From the NCBI GenBank assembly GCA_949480205.1, contig CASXXK010000009.1, positions 1-37,076 of the forward strand: 37,076 bases of DNA, given 5' to 3'. The notes beneath the pieces are model-generated. The model made no database searches and was not told the origin of the DNA. It was given only the letters and a program-made list of their open reading frames with translations. The translations under genes were made by a program, and so were the position numbers. This document shows positions 1-36,652 of this stretch, piece by piece; the stretch's first letter is position 1, and every line of letters starts with the position of its first letter. The stretch is from an uncultured Candidatus Saccharibacteria bacterium (lineage in GTDB: Bacteria > Patescibacteriota > Saccharimonadia > Saccharimonadales > Saccharimonadaceae).

Positions 1-59
1 CGCATTCCCGTAGTTTCGCTTTCCCCCTCCGCTGCCTTAGTACTGTATTAGACATGTAA
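1..59 (+). repeat. Partial lectin-like cassette C1 (3' end only)
   Basis: The first bases encode the last residues of a cassette, ending in FAFPLRCLSTVLDM and a TAA stop. The nearly invariant tail DNA runs from CCCCCTCCGCTGCC to GTATTAGACATG. The head lies outside the window. Bases 1-50 match the reverse complement of 37023-37072 exactly, including cassette-specific bases upstream of the conserved tail. Confidence 0.85.
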
Positions 60-74
60 AAACCATTATAACTA

Positions 75-5789: not shown

Positions 5790-6014
5790 CTACATGTCTA
5801 ATACAGTACTAAGGCAGCGGAGGGGGAAAGCGTGCCAGCGTGTGTCTGGGCCATAGGATGGAGTGACTGCCGTATTAAATACAAGGAGGTAGGCGGTTGC
5901 TGCAGTAGAAGATGTATACGTTCCAGCCCGTGATACCCAATAGTCACCATTGATGCCGGCAGATCTGAATGTAGCTTCACTAAGGCCAGGCAGGTTCAAG
6001 AAGCCGCTGCGCAC
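5790..6014 (-). repeat. Lectin-like cassette C2
   Basis: Translation on the minus strand runs VRSGFLNLPGLSEATFRSAG, then DYWVSRAG, ATAYLLVFNTAV, PSYGPDTRWHAFPLRC and LSTVLDM, then TAG. This matches the C-terminal part of FISUMP/DUF1566-like C-type-lectin-fold proteins. The frame is open for 20 codons upstream of the head but without an obvious gene start. It forms an inverted pair with C3, with the RhuM-Fic gene between the two heads. Confidence 0.8.
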
Positions 6015-6129: not shown

Positions 6130-6157
6130 GAGAGTAATACTAAAATAAGTGGAGACG

Positions 6158-7153
6158 ATGAAGATGGTAGAGATGGATGACTGTGTGATGATTTATGAGA
6201 CGGGTGCAAAGGCGGTAAAGTTTAACCTGGACGAGGAGACGGAAACGCTATGGGCAACGCGGACGCAGATGGCGGAACTTTTTGACGTGACGCCGCAGAA
6301 CATTACGATGCACATGAATAATGTTTATAATGAAGGTGAATTAGATAAAGAGCGAACTAGTAAGGAAATGTTACTGGTTCAAAATGAAGGTGGGCGTGAG
6401 GTGACGCGTAAAGTCAAAGTTTACAATCTCGATGCAATTATCTCGGTGGGGTATCGAGTGAGCTCGCGTAAGGCAACAGACTTTCGGATTTGGGCGACGA
6501 ATGTGTTGCATAAATATGTGGTGGATGGTGTGGCGGTAAACGAGGGACGCCTCAAGGAATTATCCAGTAAACGTTTGGAAGAGGTGAGCGGAACGCTGAC
6601 GATTGTGCAGCGACTTTTGGCGCAGAATAGCTTTTCGGGTGAGGAAGCGAAAGGTGTGTTGGAGGTGATTGCAAACTATGCGCGGACTTTCCGGACGTTA
6701 AAAGAGTATGATGAAGGCTTTGTGAAGTTCCAGGGTAAGGTTAGGGCGCGCAAAGTGCTGGAGGCTGGACAGTGCGTGGAGATGATTGATGCTTTGCGCG
6801 AGGAAATGCACGCTGGGGAGATGTTTGGTAAATTGCGGGGAGATGAGTTTGAGGGGATTCTGCGGACGATTTATCAGACTTTTGGTGGGGAAGAAGTCTA
6901 TCCCACGCTGGCAGAGAAGGCGGCGAATTTGCTGTATTTTATTATCAAAGATCATCCATTCTTTGATGGGAATAAGCGGATTGCGGCACTCTTGTTTATT
7001 AGTTTTCTTATGATGAATGGCTATCATTTGACCAACGATGGCGAGGTGAAGATTTCTGATCGGGCGCTAGTAGCGATTACGCTAATGATTGCTGAAAGCG
7101 AACCGCGTGAAAAAGGTTTGATGACGGCGGTAGTGTGTAAGATTTTGGAGTAG
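6158..7153 (+). CDS. RhuM-family protein with C-terminal Fic/Doc domain
   Basis: About 331 aa. The N-terminal part (residues 1-150) is the RhuM/virulence-protein family: KFNLDEETETLWATRTQMAELFDV resembles a helix-turn-helix, then YNLDAIISVGYRVSSRKATDFRIWA. The C-terminal part (about 190-330) is a Fic/Doc domain with the motif HPFFDGNKR (near residue 267). Fic enzymes transfer AMP or phosphate to target proteins; the GNKR ending resembles Doc-type phosphotransferases more than GNGR AMPylators. No inhibitory alpha-inh motif or antitoxin gene is seen beside it. The start could be GTG 6149, ATG 6158 or ATG 6164 (GGAG at 6151). It is the only gene between inverted cassettes C2 and C3, so it looks like cargo of that unit. 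Role inferred: phage defence or toxin-like control. Confidence 0.85.
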   Translation: MKMVEMDDCVMIYETGAKAVKFNLDEETETLWATRTQMAELFDVTPQNITMHMNNVYNEGELDKERTSKEMLLVQNEGGREVTRKVKVYNLDAIISVGYRVSSRKATDFRIWATNVLHKYVVDGVAVNEGRLKELSSKRLEEVSGTLTIVQRLLAQNSFSGEEAKGVLEVIANYARTFRTLKEYDEGFVKFQGKVRARKVLEAGQCVEMIDALREEMHAGEMFGKLRGDEFEGILRTIYQTFGGEEVYPTLAEKAANLLYFIIKDHPFFDGNKRIAALLFISFLMMNGYHLTNDGEVKISDRALVAITLMIAESEPREKGLMTAVVCKILE

Positions 7154-7164
7154 AGTTGGGGTTC

Positions 7165-7386
7165 GTGCGCAGCGGTGATCTTCGGCCGAGTGATGGTAAA
7201 TCTTGGTATGCTGGTCAGGGCGGCTATTGGTGGTCATCTCGCGGAGGGGATAATGTTTGGGGTTCGGCTGGTCTAGGTAGTTATCGCTTTGATTTTGGTG
7301 TAACTGGAGTAACTCCATCAAACGGCCCTACGTACCGTTATTATGGTTTCTTCCTCCGCTGCCTTAGTACCGTATTAGACATGTAG
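7165..7386 (+). repeat. Lectin-like cassette C3
   Basis: Starts GFVRSGDLRPSDGKSWYAGQ 11 nt after the RhuM-Fic stop, then YWWSSRGGDN, SYRFDFGVTG, PSNGPTYRYYGFFLRC and LSTVLDM, TAG. The tail has two base changes relative to the consensus (TTCC for CCCC, ACCGTATT for ACTGTATT), making it the most diverged tail here. Confidence 0.8.
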
Positions 7387-8115: not shown

Positions 8116-8334
8116 TTACATATCTAATACAGTACTAAGGCAGCGGAGGGGGAAAGCAAGCCAACAGCTATTTGGACCATCAGATGATCGAACATCACTA
8201 GTATTAAATCCAAGATAATAGGCTGAGGCAGAGGTTGCTGATGTATAGACGGCTGCTTGTGATGACCACCACTGGCCAATAGCACCAAGAGTCCAAGATT
8301 TACCAACACTCAAAGAAATGAGACCGCTGCGCAC
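8116..8334 (-). repeat. Lectin-like cassette C4
   Basis: Minus-strand translation: DYFVRSGLISLSVGKSWTLG, then QWWSSQAAVY, SASAYYLGFNTS, SSDGPNSCWLAFPLRC and LSTVLDM, TAA. Its tail starts 5 nt after the tlyA stop. Head-to-head with C5, 16 nt apart. Confidence 0.85.
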
Positions 8335-8350
8335 GAAGTAATCTGGCCTC

Positions 8351-8611
8351 GTGCGCAGCGGGTATCTTGTACCAACTGCTGGCAAGTCATGGAGTACTGG
8401 AGAAATTAGTTATACTTGGTCATCACGTGGAGCGAACGTACGATCGGATGGTATTGTTACGCCAAGTGCCTATAGTTTAAACTTTGCTACTAGGGTAAAT
8501 CCGTCCGATGGACCAAATAGTCGTTATCTTGGTATCCCCCTCCGCTGCCTTAGTACTGTATTAGACATGATGAGATGGTGTAAAAATAAAAATCCCGCTT
8601 GCGCAGAATAA
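8351..8611 (+). repeat. Lectin-like cassette C5
   Basis: GLVRSGYLVPTAGKSWSTGE, then YTWSSRGANV, SAYSLNFATRV, PSDGPNSRYLGIPLRC and LSTVLDM. The usual stop after LDM is missing, so the frame runs on for 14 codons to TAA; the conserved DNA ends at 8569. The region between the heads of C4 and C5 is a palindrome with arms CCGCTGCGCACGA and TCGTGCGCAGCGG. Confidence 0.85.
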
Positions 8612-21298: not shown

Positions 21299-21532
21299 CT
21301 ACATGTCTAATACAGTACTAAGGCAGCGGAGGGGGAGACCGTAGTAGCGATCACTTGGTCCACTAGATGCATTAACTACCGCTCCTGAGATAATTAGATG
21401 GTAGGCGCTGAGCGCAGTAGTTCCATCGTAGCGCATGCTAGAACCACGTAACGCCCACCAGTAACCATTAATACCAGCATGCCAGAATGTTGCGCTACTG
21501 ATATTGGCTAAAAGTATTAACCCGCTGCGCAC
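21299..21532 (-). repeat. Lectin-like cassette C6
   Basis: Minus strand: VRSGLILLANISSATFWHAG, then YWWALRGSSM, SAYHLIISGAV, SSGPSDRYYGLPLRC and LSTVLDM, TAG. Paired with C7, but the heads are 288 nt apart. Confidence 0.85.
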
Positions 21533-21580
21533 AAAAAAGAAGGTAACCTATTGCTCAATACTGAGCGCATCTACCTTCTA
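21533..21580 (-). terminator. Terminator of the 36-codon minus-strand ORF
   Basis: On the minus strand GAAGGTA ... TACCTTC encloses an inner GCTCA/TGAGC hairpin and is followed by TTTTTT directly before the head of cassette C6. Confidence 0.7.
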
Positions 21581-21584
21581 ATAG

Positions 21585-21695
21585 TTAGAGTGTATCGGGA
21601 AACTCATATGATGTCAATAATTTTGCAACTGTTTGCTCCTGTTTATTAGGCTGTGGCTTAAGGTTGATCGGTATAATAAAATGATAGTTGTTCAT
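21585..21695 (-). CDS. Small ORF, 36 aa, inside the cassette-unit spacer
   Basis: Minus-strand ATG frame MNNYHFIIPINLKPQPNKQE followed by 16 more residues ending in EFPDTL and TAA, then a convincing terminator. No ribosome binding site is clear. It may be a genuine micro-protein or the fragment of a larger lost gene. The surrounding 288 nt are much more A+T-rich than the neighbouring genes, like the VanZ-like gene, which hints at foreign origin. No family is recognised. Confidence 0.35.
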   Translation of the reverse strand: MNNYHFIIPINLKPQPNKQEQTVAKLLTSYEFPDTL

Positions 21696-21788
21696 ATTGG
21701 CGTTTAGTTTAGCATATTTAAATATAAATTACCAAGCACAAGCATGATAAAACTACAAAATTATATCATAGAACAGAGATAAATTTGA

Positions 21789-21819
21789 ATTGAACTAGTA
21801 ACGCAGTTACTAGTTCAAT
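21789..21819. repeat. Palindrome abutting the cassette C7 head
   Basis: ATTGAACTAGTAAC and GTTACTAGTTCAAT (14-bp perfect stem, 3-nt loop) end one base before the C7 head. It shares the core AACTAGTAA / TTACTAGTT with the palindrome at 6067-6101; the flanking stem bases differ between the copies but remain paired. Confidence 0.8.
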
Positions 21820-21820
21820 C

Positions 21821-22030
21821 GTGCGCAGCGGATGGACTGGGCCAGATGGCGGCAAATATTGGCATGCTGGGCAACGAGGACATTGGCAATCATCACGGAC
21901 ATTCTCTACGGTTACACACGCTTATGCGCTACATTATGGTGCTAATGGCGTATACGCTTCACATGACACTTATCGCTTTTATGCTTTCCCCCTCCGCTGC
22001 CTTAGTACTGTATTAGACATAGTGAGATGA
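21821..22030 (+). repeat. Lectin-like cassette C7
   Basis: VRSGWTGPDGGKYWHAGQRG, then HWQSSRTFST, HAYALHYGANG, ASHDTYRFYAFPLRC and LSTVLDI; the terminal ATG is ATA here and the frame ends at TGA two codons on. Confidence 0.85.
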
Positions 22031-22727: not shown

Positions 22728-22946
22728 CTACGATTTCTCCATGTCTAATACAGTACTAAGGCAGCGGAGGGGGAAACCATGCCAACGGTTGTTTGGACCA
22801 TGTGATGGGTAGACACCTGTAGCGTAAAAATCAAGATAGTAGGCACTGGCCAAATTGTTCATTCGTAACGACCAGCCGTAGCCTCCATTGCCAGCGCCCC
22901 GAAAAGCACCATCAGTGCCAAGTAGGTTTATCCACCCGCTGCGCAC
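22728..22946 (-). repeat. Lectin-like cassette C8 (single)
   Basis: Minus strand: VRSGWINLLGTDGAFRGAGN, then YGWSLRMNNL, SAYYLDFYATG, PSHGPNNRWHGFPLRC and LSTVLDM, then EKS and TAG. It has no inverted partner nearby; the VanZ-like gene runs into its head. Confidence 0.85.
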
Positions 22947-23609: not shown

Positions 23610-23840
23610 CATGTCTAATACAGTACTAAGGCAGCGGAGGGGGAAACCATAGTAGCGATAATCAGGGCCGCCAGATGGGGCTACTACTGAAGTGGTAAAA
23701 CCAAAATAATAGCCGCTAGGGATAGTAGTACCATCACTACGGGTTGAGGCTAAGTATGATGACCATTCACCGCCATTGGTGCCGGCAACTCTAAAGGTAG
23801 AGCCACTTACTCCAGGTAAATGTATCCACCCGCTGCGCAC
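23610..23840 (-). repeat. Lectin-like cassette C9
   Basis: Minus strand: YFVRSGWIHLPGVSGSTFRV, then GEWSSYLAST, SGYYFGFTTSV, PSGGPDYRYYGFPLRC and LSTVLDM. No stop follows directly; the frame runs into the tRNA-Arg 3' end (TGA at 23592). An open frame continues upstream of the head through C10 on the opposite strand and is not regarded as coding. Confidence 0.85.
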
Positions 23841-23854
23841 GAAGTAAAACCAAA

Positions 23855-24079
23855 GTGCGCAGCGGGTACGTTGGTACGGCTTATGCTGAGCCTCTAAAGT
23901 ATCCTGGTGGGCGTAGTTATTATTGGACGTCGCGCATGGGGCCATCACCAGATTTTGCTTATCTACTTGATTTTAACGATAATGGGCTAGTACCATCACA
24001 TCATGGAACATATTATCGTTGGTTCGCTTTCCCCCTCCGCTGCCTTAGTACTGTATTAGATATGTATGCTATAATGTAA
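23855..24079 (+). repeat. Lectin-like cassette C10
   Basis: VRSGYVGTAYAEPLKYPGGR, then YYWTSRMGPS, FAYLLDFNDNG, PSHHGTYYRWFAFPLRC and LSTVLDM, then YAIM and stop. It is head-to-head with C9 (14-nt spacer). The conserved tail ends about 3 nt before the extended -10 of the next gene. Confidence 0.85.
24067..24075 (+). promoter_or_regulatory. Extended -10, leaderless promoter of the bPH gene
   Basis: TGC-TATAAT, then 6 nt and ATG 24082. The -35 region falls inside the cassette C10 tail. Confidence 0.7.
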
Positions 24080-26851: not shown

Positions 26852-27064
26852 GTGCGCAGCGGGTTGATAAACCTGCCAGGAGTTGATGAGGCTACTCTTA
26901 GGCGTGTTGGTGAGTTTATTTATGATTGGTCGTCAAGAACTTACTATGTTGACACATTTGCATATTATCTTTCTTTTGGAGACGGAGAAATGAGCCCATC
27001 ATACGCCAATAATCGCTGGTACGCTTTCCCCCTCCGCTGCCTTAGTACTGTATTAGACATGTAG
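26852..27064 (+). repeat. Lectin-like cassette C12
   Basis: LVRSGLINLPGVDEATLRRV, then YDWSSRTYYV, FAYYLSFGDGE, PSYANNRWYAFPLRC and LSTVLDM, TAG. The tail ends 5-8 nt before the tRNA-Thr extended -10. Confidence 0.87.
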
Positions 27065-32209: not shown

Positions 32210-32360
32210 CGAGGTATAAGAAAAGATACTCCTCTGTTTTTTTGGTAGTTAAACAAAAGACAGGGCAACATCCTCTCGTTTGAGGGGTCAATTATTTATT
32301 CGCTGATGTTTGAGAGAAAAGCGAATAGACGAAAATTAATAATTTAGGAGGTGTATGCAT
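32210..32360 (+). promoter_or_regulatory. Long structured 5' leader
   Basis: About 150 nt untranslated before a strong AGGAGG ribosome binding site. Hairpins visible: CCTC-TCGTTT-GAGG at about 32272-32286 and TATTCGCT ... AGCGAATA at about 32297-32328. Long leaders are unusual in this window. Not recognised as a known riboswitch. Confidence 0.4.
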
Positions 32361-35222
32361 ATGAAACAACGTATGCGGGCTAGTTTAGCCATGTTTTTGG
32401 CGCTGGTCATGATGCTGACATTGATCCCCTCGACGGGAGTGATGGCAGCGGAACCAAACGGTAGCGGCATAGAAGTTGCTAACACAGAAGTAAGCAGCAC
32501 CAATGCGAAGGTACCTTCGCTGAGAAGTCTTTTCTCAGCGACATACTATTCGGAGCATAACCCGGATGTGAAGGCAGCATATGGCGATAATGAAAACTTG
32601 CTATACCGTCATTATCTTTATTATGGTCTGAAGGAAGGGCGCGACATCAGTCCGATTTTGGATGTGCGAGCCTATCGAGCCGGAAACCCGGATTTGGATG
32701 CTGCTTTTGGCGACGATTGGAAGGCTTACGTGGTGCATTTTTTGCAGTACGGAATCTTTGAAAATGCGGCTGGACAGCGGTCGTCCAAAGGGATTAAGTT
32801 TAATCCGGTAAAATTCCTGAATGAACATCCGGAAGCGTGGCGGACTACTGGTGGTGATTTGATTAAGGTAGTGGAATACTACATTGATCAGGGCATGCCG
32901 GTAGGAAGTTGGGTAAACACTCCGGAAGATGAACAGCGTACAGTGCAGTCTGACAATAGTTCGTCTACAAGCAATAGCTCAACGTCGGGCACTACGCCGG
33001 ATAATGGTGGAGGATCCACTAAACCGACAGTGCCGACTGAACCGGGCGTATCGGATAACGATCCGGTGAAACCCGTTGACCCTGTTGAGCCAATTGAGCC
33101 GGTAGAACCCGTGGACCCGGTAGTACCGGAGCATGAGCATACTCGGGGTTCGTTTGATGCAGATGGAAACTGCAAGGTTGAAGGTTGTGATTATACTTTG
33201 GCAGATTTGCAGAAAGCCTGCAAATTGCCGCATAGTGCAATTGCAATTGGACAGACTTGTCCGGGATGTGGAGCTCCGGGAACGAAAGAACCGGAAGAAG
33301 AGCACACAAGAGATTCTGTGCATGATAAGAATACGTTCGATGAGAACGGAGACTGCATGCTGGGGTGTGATCTGACGCTGGCAGAGTTTCAGGAGAGTTG
33401 TCCGGATAAGGACAATCATAGTAATATTCCGTCCACAGAAAAATGTGAAGTTTGTGGAGCTTCAGGAACGAAGGTGGAAACTCCGGTAGATCCGCCGAAA
33501 CATGAGCACAGTTGGGCTGCAGTTTGGACTAATGACGCTGATGCGCATTGGCATGAGTGTGAAGCGGCTGACTGTGATGTGGTGGCGAATGCCGACAAGG
33601 ATGGCTATGCTGTGCATACGTTTGGCGAATGGGATGTGACTAAAGAGCCTACAACGGAAGACGTTGGCTCTAAAATTAGAACTTGCACGGTATGTAGCTA
33701 CGAAGAAACGGAAGAAATTCCGAAATTGGAAGTAACTGATCCTGAACCTCCGCAGCACACAGCTGATTCGGAGCACACCAAAGAATCGTTTGATGATAAC
33801 GGTAGTTGCAAGGAAGGTTGCAATCTGACTTTGGAAGCGTTCCAGAATGCTTGCCAGAGCGAAGAGCATGAGACCTTGAAGGCTACGGGCGGAGAATGCT
33901 CGGTTTGCGGCAAGGTGATAGAGCAGGAGGAAAAACCTTTTGTTTGTCCGAAAGCAGATAGCCATGATGCACTGCACGATGGTGTAGCTTGCGACGGTGA
34001 AGGCTGCGATTACGTGGGCGAAGCTGAGCATAATTTTGAGGACGGGGCGTGTATTGGTTGCGATGCGACTTGTACGCCGGAAACTTGTCCGGAAAAAGAA
34101 AATCACGCCAACATTTTGACTACGGCAAAGTGTGATGTGTGCGGTGGCGCAGGAACCAAGGTGGAAGAACCGATACCGCCGGCGCATACTAAAGAGTCTG
34201 ACCATGTTTTGGCGGATTTTGAGGATGGAGTTTGTAAAGAGAATTGTGGCTTAACGCTGGCGGAGTTTCAGCAGAATTGCACGGAGCACAATGACCTACA
34301 TCAGGGCCAAATTTGCACAAACTGTGGAACCGAGGGGACAGTGGAGCATAAGTTTGAGAATGGGAGTTGTGCTTGTGGCGCGACTTGTACCGAAGAAACT
34401 TGTCCAAACAAAGATAACCACGCTGCAGTAGCTTGTAGTGAGGGTTGTGGGATTTGTCCTTATATTGCACCGGCGCACAGCTACAATTCTGGTAATCCTG
34501 AATGCATAAGATGTGGCAAGGAATGCACGCATAACTTTGGCGATGATGGAAATGGCAGTGAATGCGCATGGTGCCATATGCACAATAACGCTTACTGCAA
34601 TAGTGATTTTCATGATCATTGTAATGCGGATCCCAATGCTCATTGCCCGAATGATTGGTGCGAGCGGCCGGCAGCGGATCATAGTTGGAATGTGGAAACT
34701 GGTAGTTGCCGCGATTGTGGTGCTGCTTGCCCGAATACAGATAATCACGTTGAAGGAGAGGCTTGTGGAACTTGTGGTCACACGAAGCCACAATCGGAGC
34801 CGTCATGCACGGACGAGAGTCATGCGCAGTTAGCTTGTGGTGCTCAGTGCGATAAATGTGATTTTGTAGGTGAGCACAATTATGGAGATGACGGCGAATG
34901 TACAAAATGTCATCTGGTGAAGCCAACAGAAGGGGAATCTGGCGGACAGGATGACAGTGACGATCCTACGAATAATGGCAACAGTGGCACGGGCGGTGGT
35001 AGTAATACTGATAATGCAGACGGGATTCCGGCAACTCAGAGTCTGCCGGATGCTTTGCCGGTAGAACCGGTGAGTGGTGTTCCCGATACTATCCCGGATC
35101 CCGATTCTGAGCCCAAAGGGAATCATGATGAGTTTGATGACGATCCGGAGGAGGAAGATGAAGAACCGGAATTGGAAAATGCCGATTCAGCTGCGGATGA
35201 AGCTGACAATGTCGGCGAATAA
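32361..35222 (+). CDS. Secreted Cys-rich repeat protein, 953 aa
   Basis: ATG 32361 lies 9 nt after AGGAGG (ATG 32355 is too close). The signal peptide (RMRASLAMFLALVMMLTLIP, then a cleavable GVMAAEP) is followed by an alpha-helical domain (about 50-185) with the pattern SATYYSEHNPDVKAAYGD ... YRHYLYYGLKEGRDISP, seen in many clostridial secreted proteins. A PVEPVEP-type Pro/Glu spacer precedes about 600 residues of Cys/His-rich repeats of the form H-x-FD-x-G-x-C ... C-x-LTLAxFQ-x-x-C ... C-x-x-CG, plus one HSWAAVW ... HWHECE ... RTCTVCSYEETEEIP module. The repeats look like zinc- or disulfide-stabilised units. The C-terminus is acidic (DDDPEEEDEEPELE) with no LPXTG or membrane anchor. Probably a surface or host-contact protein. 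Confidence 0.85.
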   Translation: MKQRMRASLAMFLALVMMLTLIPSTGVMAAEPNGSGIEVANTEVSSTNAKVPSLRSLFSATYYSEHNPDVKAAYGDNENLLYRHYLYYGLKEGRDISPILDVRAYRAGNPDLDAAFGDDWKAYVVHFLQYGIFENAAGQRSSKGIKFNPVKFLNEHPEAWRTTGGDLIKVVEYYIDQGMPVGSWVNTPEDEQRTVQSDNSSSTSNSSTSGTTPDNGGGSTKPTVPTEPGVSDNDPVKPVDPVEPIEPVEPVDPVVPEHEHTRGSFDADGNCKVEGCDYTLADLQKACKLPHSAIAIGQTCPGCGAPGTKEPEEEHTRDSVHDKNTFDENGDCMLGCDLTLAEFQESCPDKDNHSNIPSTEKCEVCGASGTKVETPVDPPKHEHSWAAVWTNDADAHWHECEAADCDVVANADKDGYAVHTFGEWDVTKEPTTEDVGSKIRTCTVCSYEETEEIPKLEVTDPEPPQHTADSEHTKESFDDNGSCKEGCNLTLEAFQNACQSEEHETLKATGGECSVCGKVIEQEEKPFVCPKADSHDALHDGVACDGEGCDYVGEAEHNFEDGACIGCDATCTPETCPEKENHANILTTAKCDVCGGAGTKVEEPIPPAHTKESDHVLADFEDGVCKENCGLTLAEFQQNCTEHNDLHQGQICTNCGTEGTVEHKFENGSCACGATCTEETCPNKDNHAAVACSEGCGICPYIAPAHSYNSGNPECIRCGKECTHNFGDDGNGSECAWCHMHNNAYCNSDFHDHCNADPNAHCPNDWCERPAADHSWNVETGSCRDCGAACPNTDNHVEGEACGTCGHTKPQSEPSCTDESHAQLACGAQCDKCDFVGEHNYGDDGECTKCHLVKPTEGESGGQDDSDDPTNNGNSGTGGGSNTDNADGIPATQSLPDALPVEPVSGVPDTIPDPDSEPKGNHDEFDDDPEEEDEEPELENADSAADEADNVGE

Positions 35223-35271
35223 CCCAATAACAGTTTAATACTGATCATATAGATATATACCTCGTAAATTT

Positions 35272-35299
35272 AAACGACCGGCAATTGTCGGTCGTTTTT
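35272..35299 (+). terminator. Terminator between the two secreted protein genes
   Basis: ACGACCG ... CGGTCGT hairpin followed by TTTTT. Confidence 0.85.
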
Positions 35300-35306
35300 A
35301 ATGGTA

Positions 35307-35335
35307 TTGCTTTTCTTTGCAACAATGAGTATACT
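35307..35335 (+). promoter_or_regulatory. Promoter of the 420-aa secreted protein
   Basis: TTGCTT (35307-35312), 17-nt spacer, TATACT (35330-35335), followed by a sequence resembling the start of the other paralogue's leader. Confidence 0.7.
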
Positions 35336-35389
35336 AGAGAGACGAGGTATGGGGGAACTGAGAGGACATTAGGAGGTAGATAATTAAGC

Positions 35390-36652
35390 ATGAAAACTAA
35401 ATATGGGAAGCCCTGGTGGGCGAATTGTTTAGCGGTGACTTTGGTTTTGGCACTGATGTTGGTTTTGATGCCGACGGTTACTGCGCAGGCAGCACCGGCC
35501 GATACGGCGGTGACGGAAAGTACAGAAGGTACAGATGTGGAAGATACGGCGGTTAAGACTGCGACCAAGCTTGACAAGGAAACGGTTTTGGCATTGAAAA
35601 GTATCTTCTCGCTTGACTATTATGCCAAGTGTAACCCGGATGTGTTGCAGGTCTTCGGCTATAACGAGGCAGCAATATTCCAACACTTTTTGGACTACGG
35701 CTTAGAGGAGGGGCGTGTAGTTAGTCCGATTGTAAATTTGCAGGCGTATCGTGATGCCAGCCCGGACTTGGTGGAAGTCTACGGCGATGACTGGAAGGGT
35801 TTGGCTGGGCATTTCGTAACATACGGAATTTATGAAACCGCCAATGGCGACCGTCCGTCGAACGGAGTTTTGTTTAATCCGGTAACGTATTTGCAGGAGC
35901 ATCCGGAAGCGGAGCTGGCGACCGGGGGCGATGTGCTGAAGGCGGCAGAACTGTTCATTGACGAAGGCATGCCGGCTGGAGAATGGGCAGATGAGACTAT
36001 AGTGGCCGTAATGCAGGCAGAGAGCTACGAAGAAGTACAGAATATCCTGACTGAAGCTGAAGTCTCCAGAGATGTTGAAGGTAATTGGAAGCCCGAAGCA
36101 ACTGAAAGTAACGGGAACAATTCTTCAACTATGACTACGCCTTCAGAGCCGACTATTACGCCGCCGCAATTAATTGATCCGCCCGTATTGCCGGAAACAC
36201 CTGATACGCCGGATGGGCCTGACGAACCGGAAGTTCCGGAAGTTCCCGAACCGCCCGTGATACCGGATCCGCCGGAGCCGGTTTGTGGGGAAGACCACGC
36301 AGCGTTGCGTTGTGGTGAGGCTTGCGGTTCTTGCGACTATGTCGCTCCGGATCATGAATATGAGAGCGGCTATTGTGTCAAATGTGGTATATCGAGGGTG
36401 CAGGCGACCTGTCAGCATAATTTCGTGAATGGCACGTGCGTGAAGGGTGGAAATACGCAGGGTTGCGGTTTCCATGATCCCAACTATGTCAATCATGAGC
36501 ATGAATACGGTGATGACGGATATTGTAAGCTGTGCAAGGAGCGAAACCCGGAATTGCCGCCCGAAGAAGTTGAAGGCGAACCGGAGGTAGTACCTCCGAC
36601 ACCGCAGGAGCCGATTCCTACGGTGTCGGGAGGAGATGCTATTGCTGCGTGA
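35390..36652 (+). CDS. Secreted Cys-rich protein, paralogue, 420 aa
   Basis: Signal peptide (ANCLAVTLVLALMLVLMPTV, then TAQAAPAD) and the same N-terminal domain as the upstream gene: SIFSLDYYAKCNPDVLQVFG, HFLDYGLEEGRVVSPI, GIYETANGDRPSNGVLFNPV, then FIDEGMPAGEW. A Pro-rich spacer (PPVLPETPDTPDGPDEPE) leads to a shorter Cys/His part (CGEDHAALRCGEACGSCDYV, CVKCG, CKLCKERN), giving a roughly half-size version. The end is PTVSGGDAIAA without an anchor. AGGAGG lies 13 nt before the ATG, longer than usual. The pair probably arose by tandem duplication, each copy with its own promoter and terminator. Confidence 0.85.
   Translation: MKTKYGKPWWANCLAVTLVLALMLVLMPTVTAQAAPADTAVTESTEGTDVEDTAVKTATKLDKETVLALKSIFSLDYYAKCNPDVLQVFGYNEAAIFQHFLDYGLEEGRVVSPIVNLQAYRDASPDLVEVYGDDWKGLAGHFVTYGIYETANGDRPSNGVLFNPVTYLQEHPEAELATGGDVLKAAELFIDEGMPAGEWADETIVAVMQAESYEEVQNILTEAEVSRDVEGNWKPEATESNGNNSSTMTTPSEPTITPPQLIDPPVLPETPDTPDGPDEPEVPEVPEPPVIPDPPEPVCGEDHAALRCGEACGSCDYVAPDHEYESGYCVKCGISRVQATCQHNFVNGTCVKGGNTQGCGFHDPNYVNHEHEYGDDGYCKLCKERNPELPPEEVEGEPEVVPPTPQEPIPTVSGGDAIAA

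What the first reader, a model, noticed from the sequence alone, without database searches (positions are those of the whole stretch)
8116..8611. Cassettes form head-to-head units with inverted terminal repeats and a conserved palindromic centre
C4/C5, C9/C10 and C11/C12 form units of about 451-455 bp whose tails act as inverted terminal repeats of at least 34 bp. The centres share arms GTGCGCAGCGG and a spacer that differs by one base between C4/C5 (GAAGTAATCTGGCCTC) and C11/C12 (GAAGTAATCTAGCCTC); the C9/C10 spacer is a variant (GAAGTAAAACCAAA). The centre and ends are thus copied as one element while both bodies diverge completely. This is not a normal transposon pattern and suggests that the ends and centre are recombination or transposition signals, with bodies exchanged separately.
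Basis: seen in the sequence. Interest (0 to 1): 0.82.

Follow-up and report, generated by a model that had tools for sequence, protein, structure and literature searches.

The report
Dispersed cassette library written by retroelement
The paired repeats are gene-less copies of the variable tail of one surface protein, scattered by the dozen through a tiny bacterium's genome and rewritten by a known mutation machine (a diversity-generating retroelement), apparently as a stock of spare variants that can be copied into the working gene.

Summary
The repeats are real. Each cassette is an open but promoterless frame of 60-70 codons (VRSG...FPLRCLSTVLDM), the C-terminal third of a FISUMP/C-type-lectin-like surface protein. 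This Saccharibacteria-related genome has at least 84 such tails; adjacent ones are head-to-head in 22 of 24 cases.

They are variable repeats (VRs) of a diversity-generating retroelement (DGR). The genome also holds about 10 stand-alone Asn-rich cassettes with a different 3' tail, which act as template repeats (TRs), plus a DGR-like reverse transcriptase and an accessory gene. TR-to-VR substitutions concentrate at template adenines (closest pair 14/35 against 8/125; relatives OR 5-12), while TR orthologues show no such bias.

Between species at about 80% DNA identity, cassette sites and orientation are conserved but the bodies share no more identity than random pairs. The unit at 8116-8582 is absent in the relative; no target-site duplication is seen.

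In a sister species the full-length gene carries a VR identical to a silent cassette elsewhere, so cassettes are also copied whole between sites. DGRs are known; a large gene-less VR library fed by dispersed TRs was not found described. Direction of copying and biological role are inferred.

The parts
1..60 (+). 3' end of a VR cassette cut by the contig start
   Evidence: tail at 26-51; identical (51 nt, inverted) to the contig's other end
5798..6014 (-). VR cassette; body identical to a cassette on contig C22 (232 nt, 1 mismatch)
7165..7378 (+). VR cassette; its site is occupied in the same orientation in G064 with a different body
8124..8334 (-).
8324..8361 (.). palindromic centre: two inverted heads around a 16-nt spacer
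8351..8564 (+).
21307..21532 (-). VR cassette, pair with 288-nt spacer
21821..22016 (+). VR cassette, partner of the above; pair present at the orthologous site in G064 with other bodies
22745..22946 (-). unpaired VR cassette
23615..23840 (-). VR cassette (C9)
23855..24059 (+). VR cassette (C10); 14-nt spacer to C9
26613..26835 (-). VR cassette (C11)
26852..27056 (+). VR cassette (C12); 16-nt spacer to C11
37022..37076 (-). 3' end of a VR cassette cut by the contig end

Best explanation
The cassettes are variable repeats (VRs) of a chromosomal diversity-generating retroelement whose targets are mostly not genes but silent, promoterless copies of the C-terminal third of one secreted FISUMP/C-type-lectin-like protein. 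SHOWN from sequence: one DGR-like reverse transcriptase with a neighbouring accessory gene (contig C2); about 10 dispersed stand-alone template repeats (TRs) with their own conserved 3' tail; at least 84 dispersed VR tails with a different conserved 3' tail; adenine-biased TR-to-VR change; a shared 11-bp 5' head; sites conserved but bodies replaced between species; whole-cassette copying between sites, including between a silent site and the full-length gene in a sister species. INFERRED: TR RNAs are reverse transcribed in trans with errors at A, and the cDNA is primed at the VR tail and joined by the short head homology. Ordinary recombination through head and tail then copies whole cassettes among sites, including into the expressed gene, so the genome keeps a large reserve of ligand-binding variants of a surface protein. 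Head-to-head pairing probably reflects how cassette sites multiply; that step is unexplained.
For: Whole-genome counts and open frames: 66 of 68 complete VR cassettes are open for at least 55 codons upstream of LRC. TR class with tail CGCGG..GGTGCCGATCTTT: 10 in G000 and 6 found in G064, four compared orthologue pairs at 81-93% nt identity. The same TR tail lies beside the RT in G067 and G121. Adenine bias: G000 closest pair A 14/35 against 8/125, OR 9.75, p 5e-6; five closest VRs A 68/185 against 89/660, OR 3.7, p 2e-11; G067 OR 5.3, p 6e-9; G121 19/36 against 12/139, OR 11.8, p 2.5e-8. Controls: TR-TR orthologues 0.08/0.09/0.07/0.16 for A/C/G/T, VR-VR pairs nearly flat. RT in G000 at C2:65763-66962 and accessory at 64808-65800; best solved relative 8ub7_A, E 2.4e-20. 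Full-length gene and expressed-silent identity. Site conservation with body turnover. Moderate fold similarity to C-type-lectin folds including Mtd, the BPP-1 DGR target (Z 5-6.7). Published requirement of at least 8 bp 5' identity and a 3' IMH for retrohoming (PMC3240598).
Against: In G000 itself no TR lies beside the RT before the contig end, and the G000 full-length gene (C20) is cut by the contig end just before its VR, so the expressed VR of this species is not seen. Most VRs also differ from every known TR at many non-A positions, and in G064 none is closer than 0.71 at non-A sites. So much of the present divergence is older mutation, lost templates or recombination. Identical mutated bodies at two sites cannot come from independent retrohoming, so a second copying process is required; its direction is unknown. 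The accessory protein matches no family and its model is poor.
Confidence: 0.8

Rival explanations
1. Gene-less VRs are by-products: ectopic retrohoming targets that spread as repeats and decay, with no role as a reserve; only the VR in the full-length gene matters.
For: No promoter, start codon or signal peptide recognised in the cassettes. Most VRs carry many non-A changes, and in G064 none is close to a TR. One cassette is frameshifted and one tail has no cassette. Gain or loss of sites is visible (one unit present in G000, empty in G064).
Against: 66 of 68 complete cassettes remain open, even those with 30-50% change at non-A positions. Body replacement at conserved sites is complete. A full-length gene carries an exact copy of a silent cassette. 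Openness could in part be kept by refreshing from TRs, because AAY codons cannot mutate to stops by A changes.
Confidence: 0.25
2. Classical silent-cassette antigenic variation by gene conversion (as pilS/pilE or vls) without a retroelement; the RT is unrelated.
For: Silent cassettes with short conserved ends, one full-length gene, identical bodies at different sites with boundaries at head and tail, some partial tracts.
Against: Adenine-specific change from a distinct, Asn-rich template class in three genomes, absent between TR orthologues. TRs lie beside a DGR-like RT in two relatives.
Confidence: 0.08
3. The head-to-head unit is a mobile element (MITE- or REPIN-like) with inverted terminal repeats, and the bodies are passengers.
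For: Tails form 34-40 bp inverted terminal repeats; 22 of 24 close neighbours are head-to-head; a whole unit is absent at the orthologous site in G064.
Against: No target-site duplication (mean shared string 5.09 against 4.77 +/- 0.19 shuffled); no Y1 transposase in G000 or G064; centres differ in length and sequence; tails encode the protein end FPLRCLSTVLDM and the full-length gene of G024 has the corresponding tail.
Confidence: 0.05

Closest known systems
Bordetella phage BPP-1 diversity-generating retroelement (Mtd target)
   Same: RT, TR and VR with adenine-specific change, short 5' identity and distinct 3' ends of TR and VR, target at the C-terminus of a C-type-lectin-like protein
   Different: BPP-1 has one TR beside the RT and one VR inside the target gene; here about 10 TRs are dispersed, at least 84 VRs are mostly outside any gene, and the accessory protein is 331 aa with no family match
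Multi-VR cellular DGRs (survey PMC6642488) and the Patescibacteria-restricted DGR clade (PMC8144416)
   Same: Several VRs per RT and several TRs are reported; DGRs are common in this phylum
   Different: Reported multiple VRs mostly lie in target genes; a dispersed silent cassette library in head-to-head pairs is not described in the passages read
pilE/pilS and vlsE silent-cassette antigenic variation
   Same: Promoterless cassettes with short conserved ends; exact cassette copies at the full-length gene
   Different: No retroelement, adenine bias or templates there (own knowledge); those cassettes lie in tandem arrays or a few loci, here they are dispersed over the whole chromosome
DGR target proteins with Fib_succ_major or DUF1566 domains (PMC4159848)
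   Same: Same kind of C-terminal domain is diversified
   Different: There the VR is part of the target gene and is written directly

Membership tests
Diversity-generating retroelement | reverse transcriptase of DGR type | tested here: met
   G000 C2:65763-66962, 73% identical to the G067 RT, as are those of the other library genomes at 71-73%; best solved relative 8ub7_A E 2.4e-20, other RTs no better than 3e-4; that 8ub7 is the BPP-1 DGR RT is from my own knowledge
Diversity-generating retroelement | TR/VR pair with substitutions concentrated at template adenines | tested here: met
   G000, G067, G121; control TR-TR orthologues not biased
Diversity-generating retroelement | TR and VR share short 5' identity but differ at the 3' end (IMH* against IMH) | tested here: met
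   shared head GTGCGCAGCGG; VR tail CTTAGTACTGTATTAG, TR tail CGCGG..GGTGCCGATCTTT
Diversity-generating retroelement | TR lies beside the RT (typical, not essential) | tested here: inconclusive
   seen in G067 and G121; not found between the RT and the contig end in G000
Diversity-generating retroelement | VR at the 3' end of a target gene for a ligand-binding C-type-lectin-like domain | tested here: inconclusive
   met for the full-length gene of G024 (fold Z 5-6.7); G000 gene is cut before the VR; the many other VRs are not in full-length genes
Diversity-generating retroelement | Avd-type accessory protein | tested here: inconclusive
   conserved 331-358 aa protein beside the RT in six genomes, no convincing family match, poor model
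Diversity-generating retroelement | hairpin/cruciform just downstream of VR | not tested
   no systematic test of VR downstream hairpins was made
Silent-cassette antigenic variation | promoterless cassettes copied into one expressed gene | tested here: inconclusive
   silent cassettes and an identical body in the full-length gene of G024 shown; direction and change over time not testable here
Silent-cassette antigenic variation | RecA-dependent gene conversion | not testable with these tools
   needs genetics
MITE/REPIN-type transposon | target-site duplication | tested here: not met
   22 pairs, shared strings not clearly longer than in shuffled pairs
MITE/REPIN-type transposon | matching Y1 (RAYT) transposase in the genome | tested here: not met
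   PF01797 not found in G000, G064, G013, G067, G121; other transposase families not tested

The most novel reading that the evidence does not exclude
A two-tier diversification system: a DGR with many trans-acting template RNAs writes adenine-mutated sequence into a chromosome-wide library of silent cassettes, and recombination through the short shared ends then copies single library entries into one expressed surface gene. It combines DGR hypermutation with pilS/vls-like cassette switching.
Probability: 0.5. Interest if true: 0.9.

Novelty: new variant of a known kind. Interest (0 to 1): 0.8.

Why it matters
Saccharibacteria have tiny genomes and, where cultured, live on other bacteria. This one gives about 2% of its genome (84 tails at roughly 210 bp over 855 kb) to spare endings of one secreted lectin-like protein. 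If the library feeds the expressed gene, it is a new way to use a DGR: mutate in silence first, then install ready-made variants. It would suggest a molecular basis for changing attachment or evading recognition. It also predicts that assemblies break at this gene, as they do in several MAGs.

Tried and rejected
(1) Transposon or TIR element: target-site duplication test negative, no Y1 transposase in G000 or G064. (2) DGR was at first set aside because PF00078 found only an AbiP2 defence RT in G000 and none in G064; a direct search with the G067 accessory+RT sequence then found the DGR-like RT in both, so PF00078 is too insensitive for this RT. (3) Pure gene conversion without RT: rejected by the adenine bias. 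(4) Foldseek on the target domain gave no significant match; only the VIA second look gave moderate C-type-lectin hits. (5) Accessory-protein model too poor for a fold search. (6) Spacer core motif AACAGRGGTRRA: recurs in longer spacers but its function stays unknown. (7) A literature search for Saccharibacteria with antigenic variation or silent cassettes found nothing relevant; a search for DGR with silent copies found no such system. Only open-access papers are held.

Full report
WHAT IS THERE. The window is one whole contig (C9) of an 855-kb, 28-contig genome. The whole genome has 84 tails and 75 exact heads. Sixteen tails are cut by contig ends; of the 68 complete ones, 66 stand at the end of a frame open for at least 55 codons upstream of LRC, usually reading VRSG...FP|LRCLSTVLDM. 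Neighbouring tails closer than 700 bp are head-to-head in 22 of 24 cases (p = 9e-12). Spacers between heads are 14-16, 84-85, 120-129, 265-288 nt or longer, so the short palindromic centre is one of several types.

WHAT THE CASSETTES ENCODE. They are the C-terminal third of a FISUMP-like domain. The only Fib_succ_major hit in the genome is the upstream part of such a domain, in a 468-aa signal-peptide frame that runs off the end of contig C20 just before the expected VRSG. In several related MAGs the same gene also ends at a contig edge at or near the cassette. A model of the domain (mean pLDDT 84) shows moderate similarity to C-type-lectin folds, among them Mtd and a Bacteroides fimbrial protein (Z about 5-6.7); Foldseek alone found nothing significant. 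NCBIfam gives a sub-threshold FISUMP match.

CASSETTES ARE COPIED WHOLE. In G024 the VR of the full-length gene is identical, apart from one base after the coding end, to a silent cassette on another contig. A second, 5'-truncated copy of the gene carries another VR that matches a different silent cassette at 99%. In G000 three pairs, and in G064 four pairs, of silent cassettes at different sites share their body; most tracts run from the head to the tail with unrelated flanks, and a few are partial.

SITES ARE OLD, BODIES ARE NEW. Eight window cassettes have a cassette at the same place and in the same orientation in G064. Their bodies are no more alike (0.289) than random pairs (0.316 +/- 0.058). 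The unit at 8116-8582 is absent: G064 has 34-35 bp between the two flanking conserved stretches. Tails are homogenised within each species (G000 ..LDM, G064 ..LGM, G024 ..VY). Target-site duplications are not seen.

THE WRITER IS A DGR. Ten cassettes in G000 have another tail, CGCGG..GGTGCCGATCTTT, Asn-rich bodies, no head-to-head partner, and often an upstream GTGAACTTCT motif and a downstream terminator-like hairpin. Six such cassettes were found in G064; the four compared pairs are 81-93% identical to G000 orthologues. In G067 and G121 a cassette with the same tail lies just downstream of an accessory gene and an RT gene. These are template repeats. From template to VR, changes fall on adenines: 14/35 against 8/125 in the closest G000 pair, OR 3.7 (p 2e-11) over the five closest, OR 5.3 in G067 and 11.8 in G121. 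TR orthologues between species show no such bias, and VR-VR pairs are nearly flat. The bias weakens with distance, as expected if ordinary mutation and recombination accumulate later. G000 has the RT (C2:65763-66962) and accessory gene (C2:64808-65800), found only by direct search. The RT's best solved relative is 8ub7_A (E 2.4e-20), which I know as the BPP-1 DGR RT. The other G000 RT is AbiP2.

MECHANISM. Shown: template and variable classes, adenine bias, RT, conserved boundaries, site conservation, whole-cassette copying. Inferred: template RNAs act in trans; cDNA is primed at the VR tail and finished at the 11-bp head, which exceeds the 8-bp minimum reported for BPP-1 (PMC3240598); recombination then moves finished cassettes, including into the expressed gene. 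Not explained: why cassettes sit head-to-head, how new sites arise, and what the two-hairpin spacers with AACAGRGGTRRA do.

COMPARISON AND NOVELTY. DGRs with several VRs and TRs are known (PMC6642488), and one DGR clade is restricted to Patescibacteria (PMC8144416). Fib_succ_major domains are known DGR targets (PMC4159848). I found no description of a large silent VR library served by dispersed templates (open-access papers only). Large libraries occur in only some genus members: of 118 genomes searched, seven (G000, G013, G024, G064, G067, G074, G121) reach 87 or more first-look candidates.

Noticed in passing
window 6149-7153: A RhuM/Fic-domain protein gene lies between two diverging VR cassettes (5798-6014 and 7165-7378); the same arrangement with different cassette bodies exists in G064.
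   Followed up: partly
G000 C8:26400-26900 (L308:1102-2607): An AbiP2-type defence reverse transcriptase, the only RT that PF00078 detects in this genome.
   Followed up: yes
longer spacers between heads, e.g. window 21533-21820; standalone copy L352:9590-9650: Longer centres share a core like AACAGRGGTRRA flanked by two hairpins in three species; a copy without a nearby cassette lies downstream of the RT gene. Function unknown.
   Followed up: partly
TR loci (L031, L034, L053, L055, L062, L064, L066, L068, L337): Template repeats are often preceded by GTGAACTTCT about 60-90 nt upstream and followed by a terminator-like hairpin; several sit near tRNA genes.
   Followed up: partly
G024 C24:17958-18326 (L136): A 5'-truncated copy of the full-length gene beside a dehydrogenase gene, with its own VR; real second site or assembly artefact is unclear.
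   Followed up: partly
genome G001: Two RT copies about 55% identical to the library RT but almost no cassette matches, so the RT occurs without the library.
   Followed up: no
window 32355-36652: Two large secreted proteins with Cys/His-rich repeats (CxxC...H) of unknown function.
   Followed up: no
ends of contigs C1, C3, C7, C9-C13, C15, C18, C21, C24, C27 of G000: Many contigs end inside cassette tails shared by two places, so cassettes shape how such genomes assemble and some are missed in counts.
   Followed up: partly
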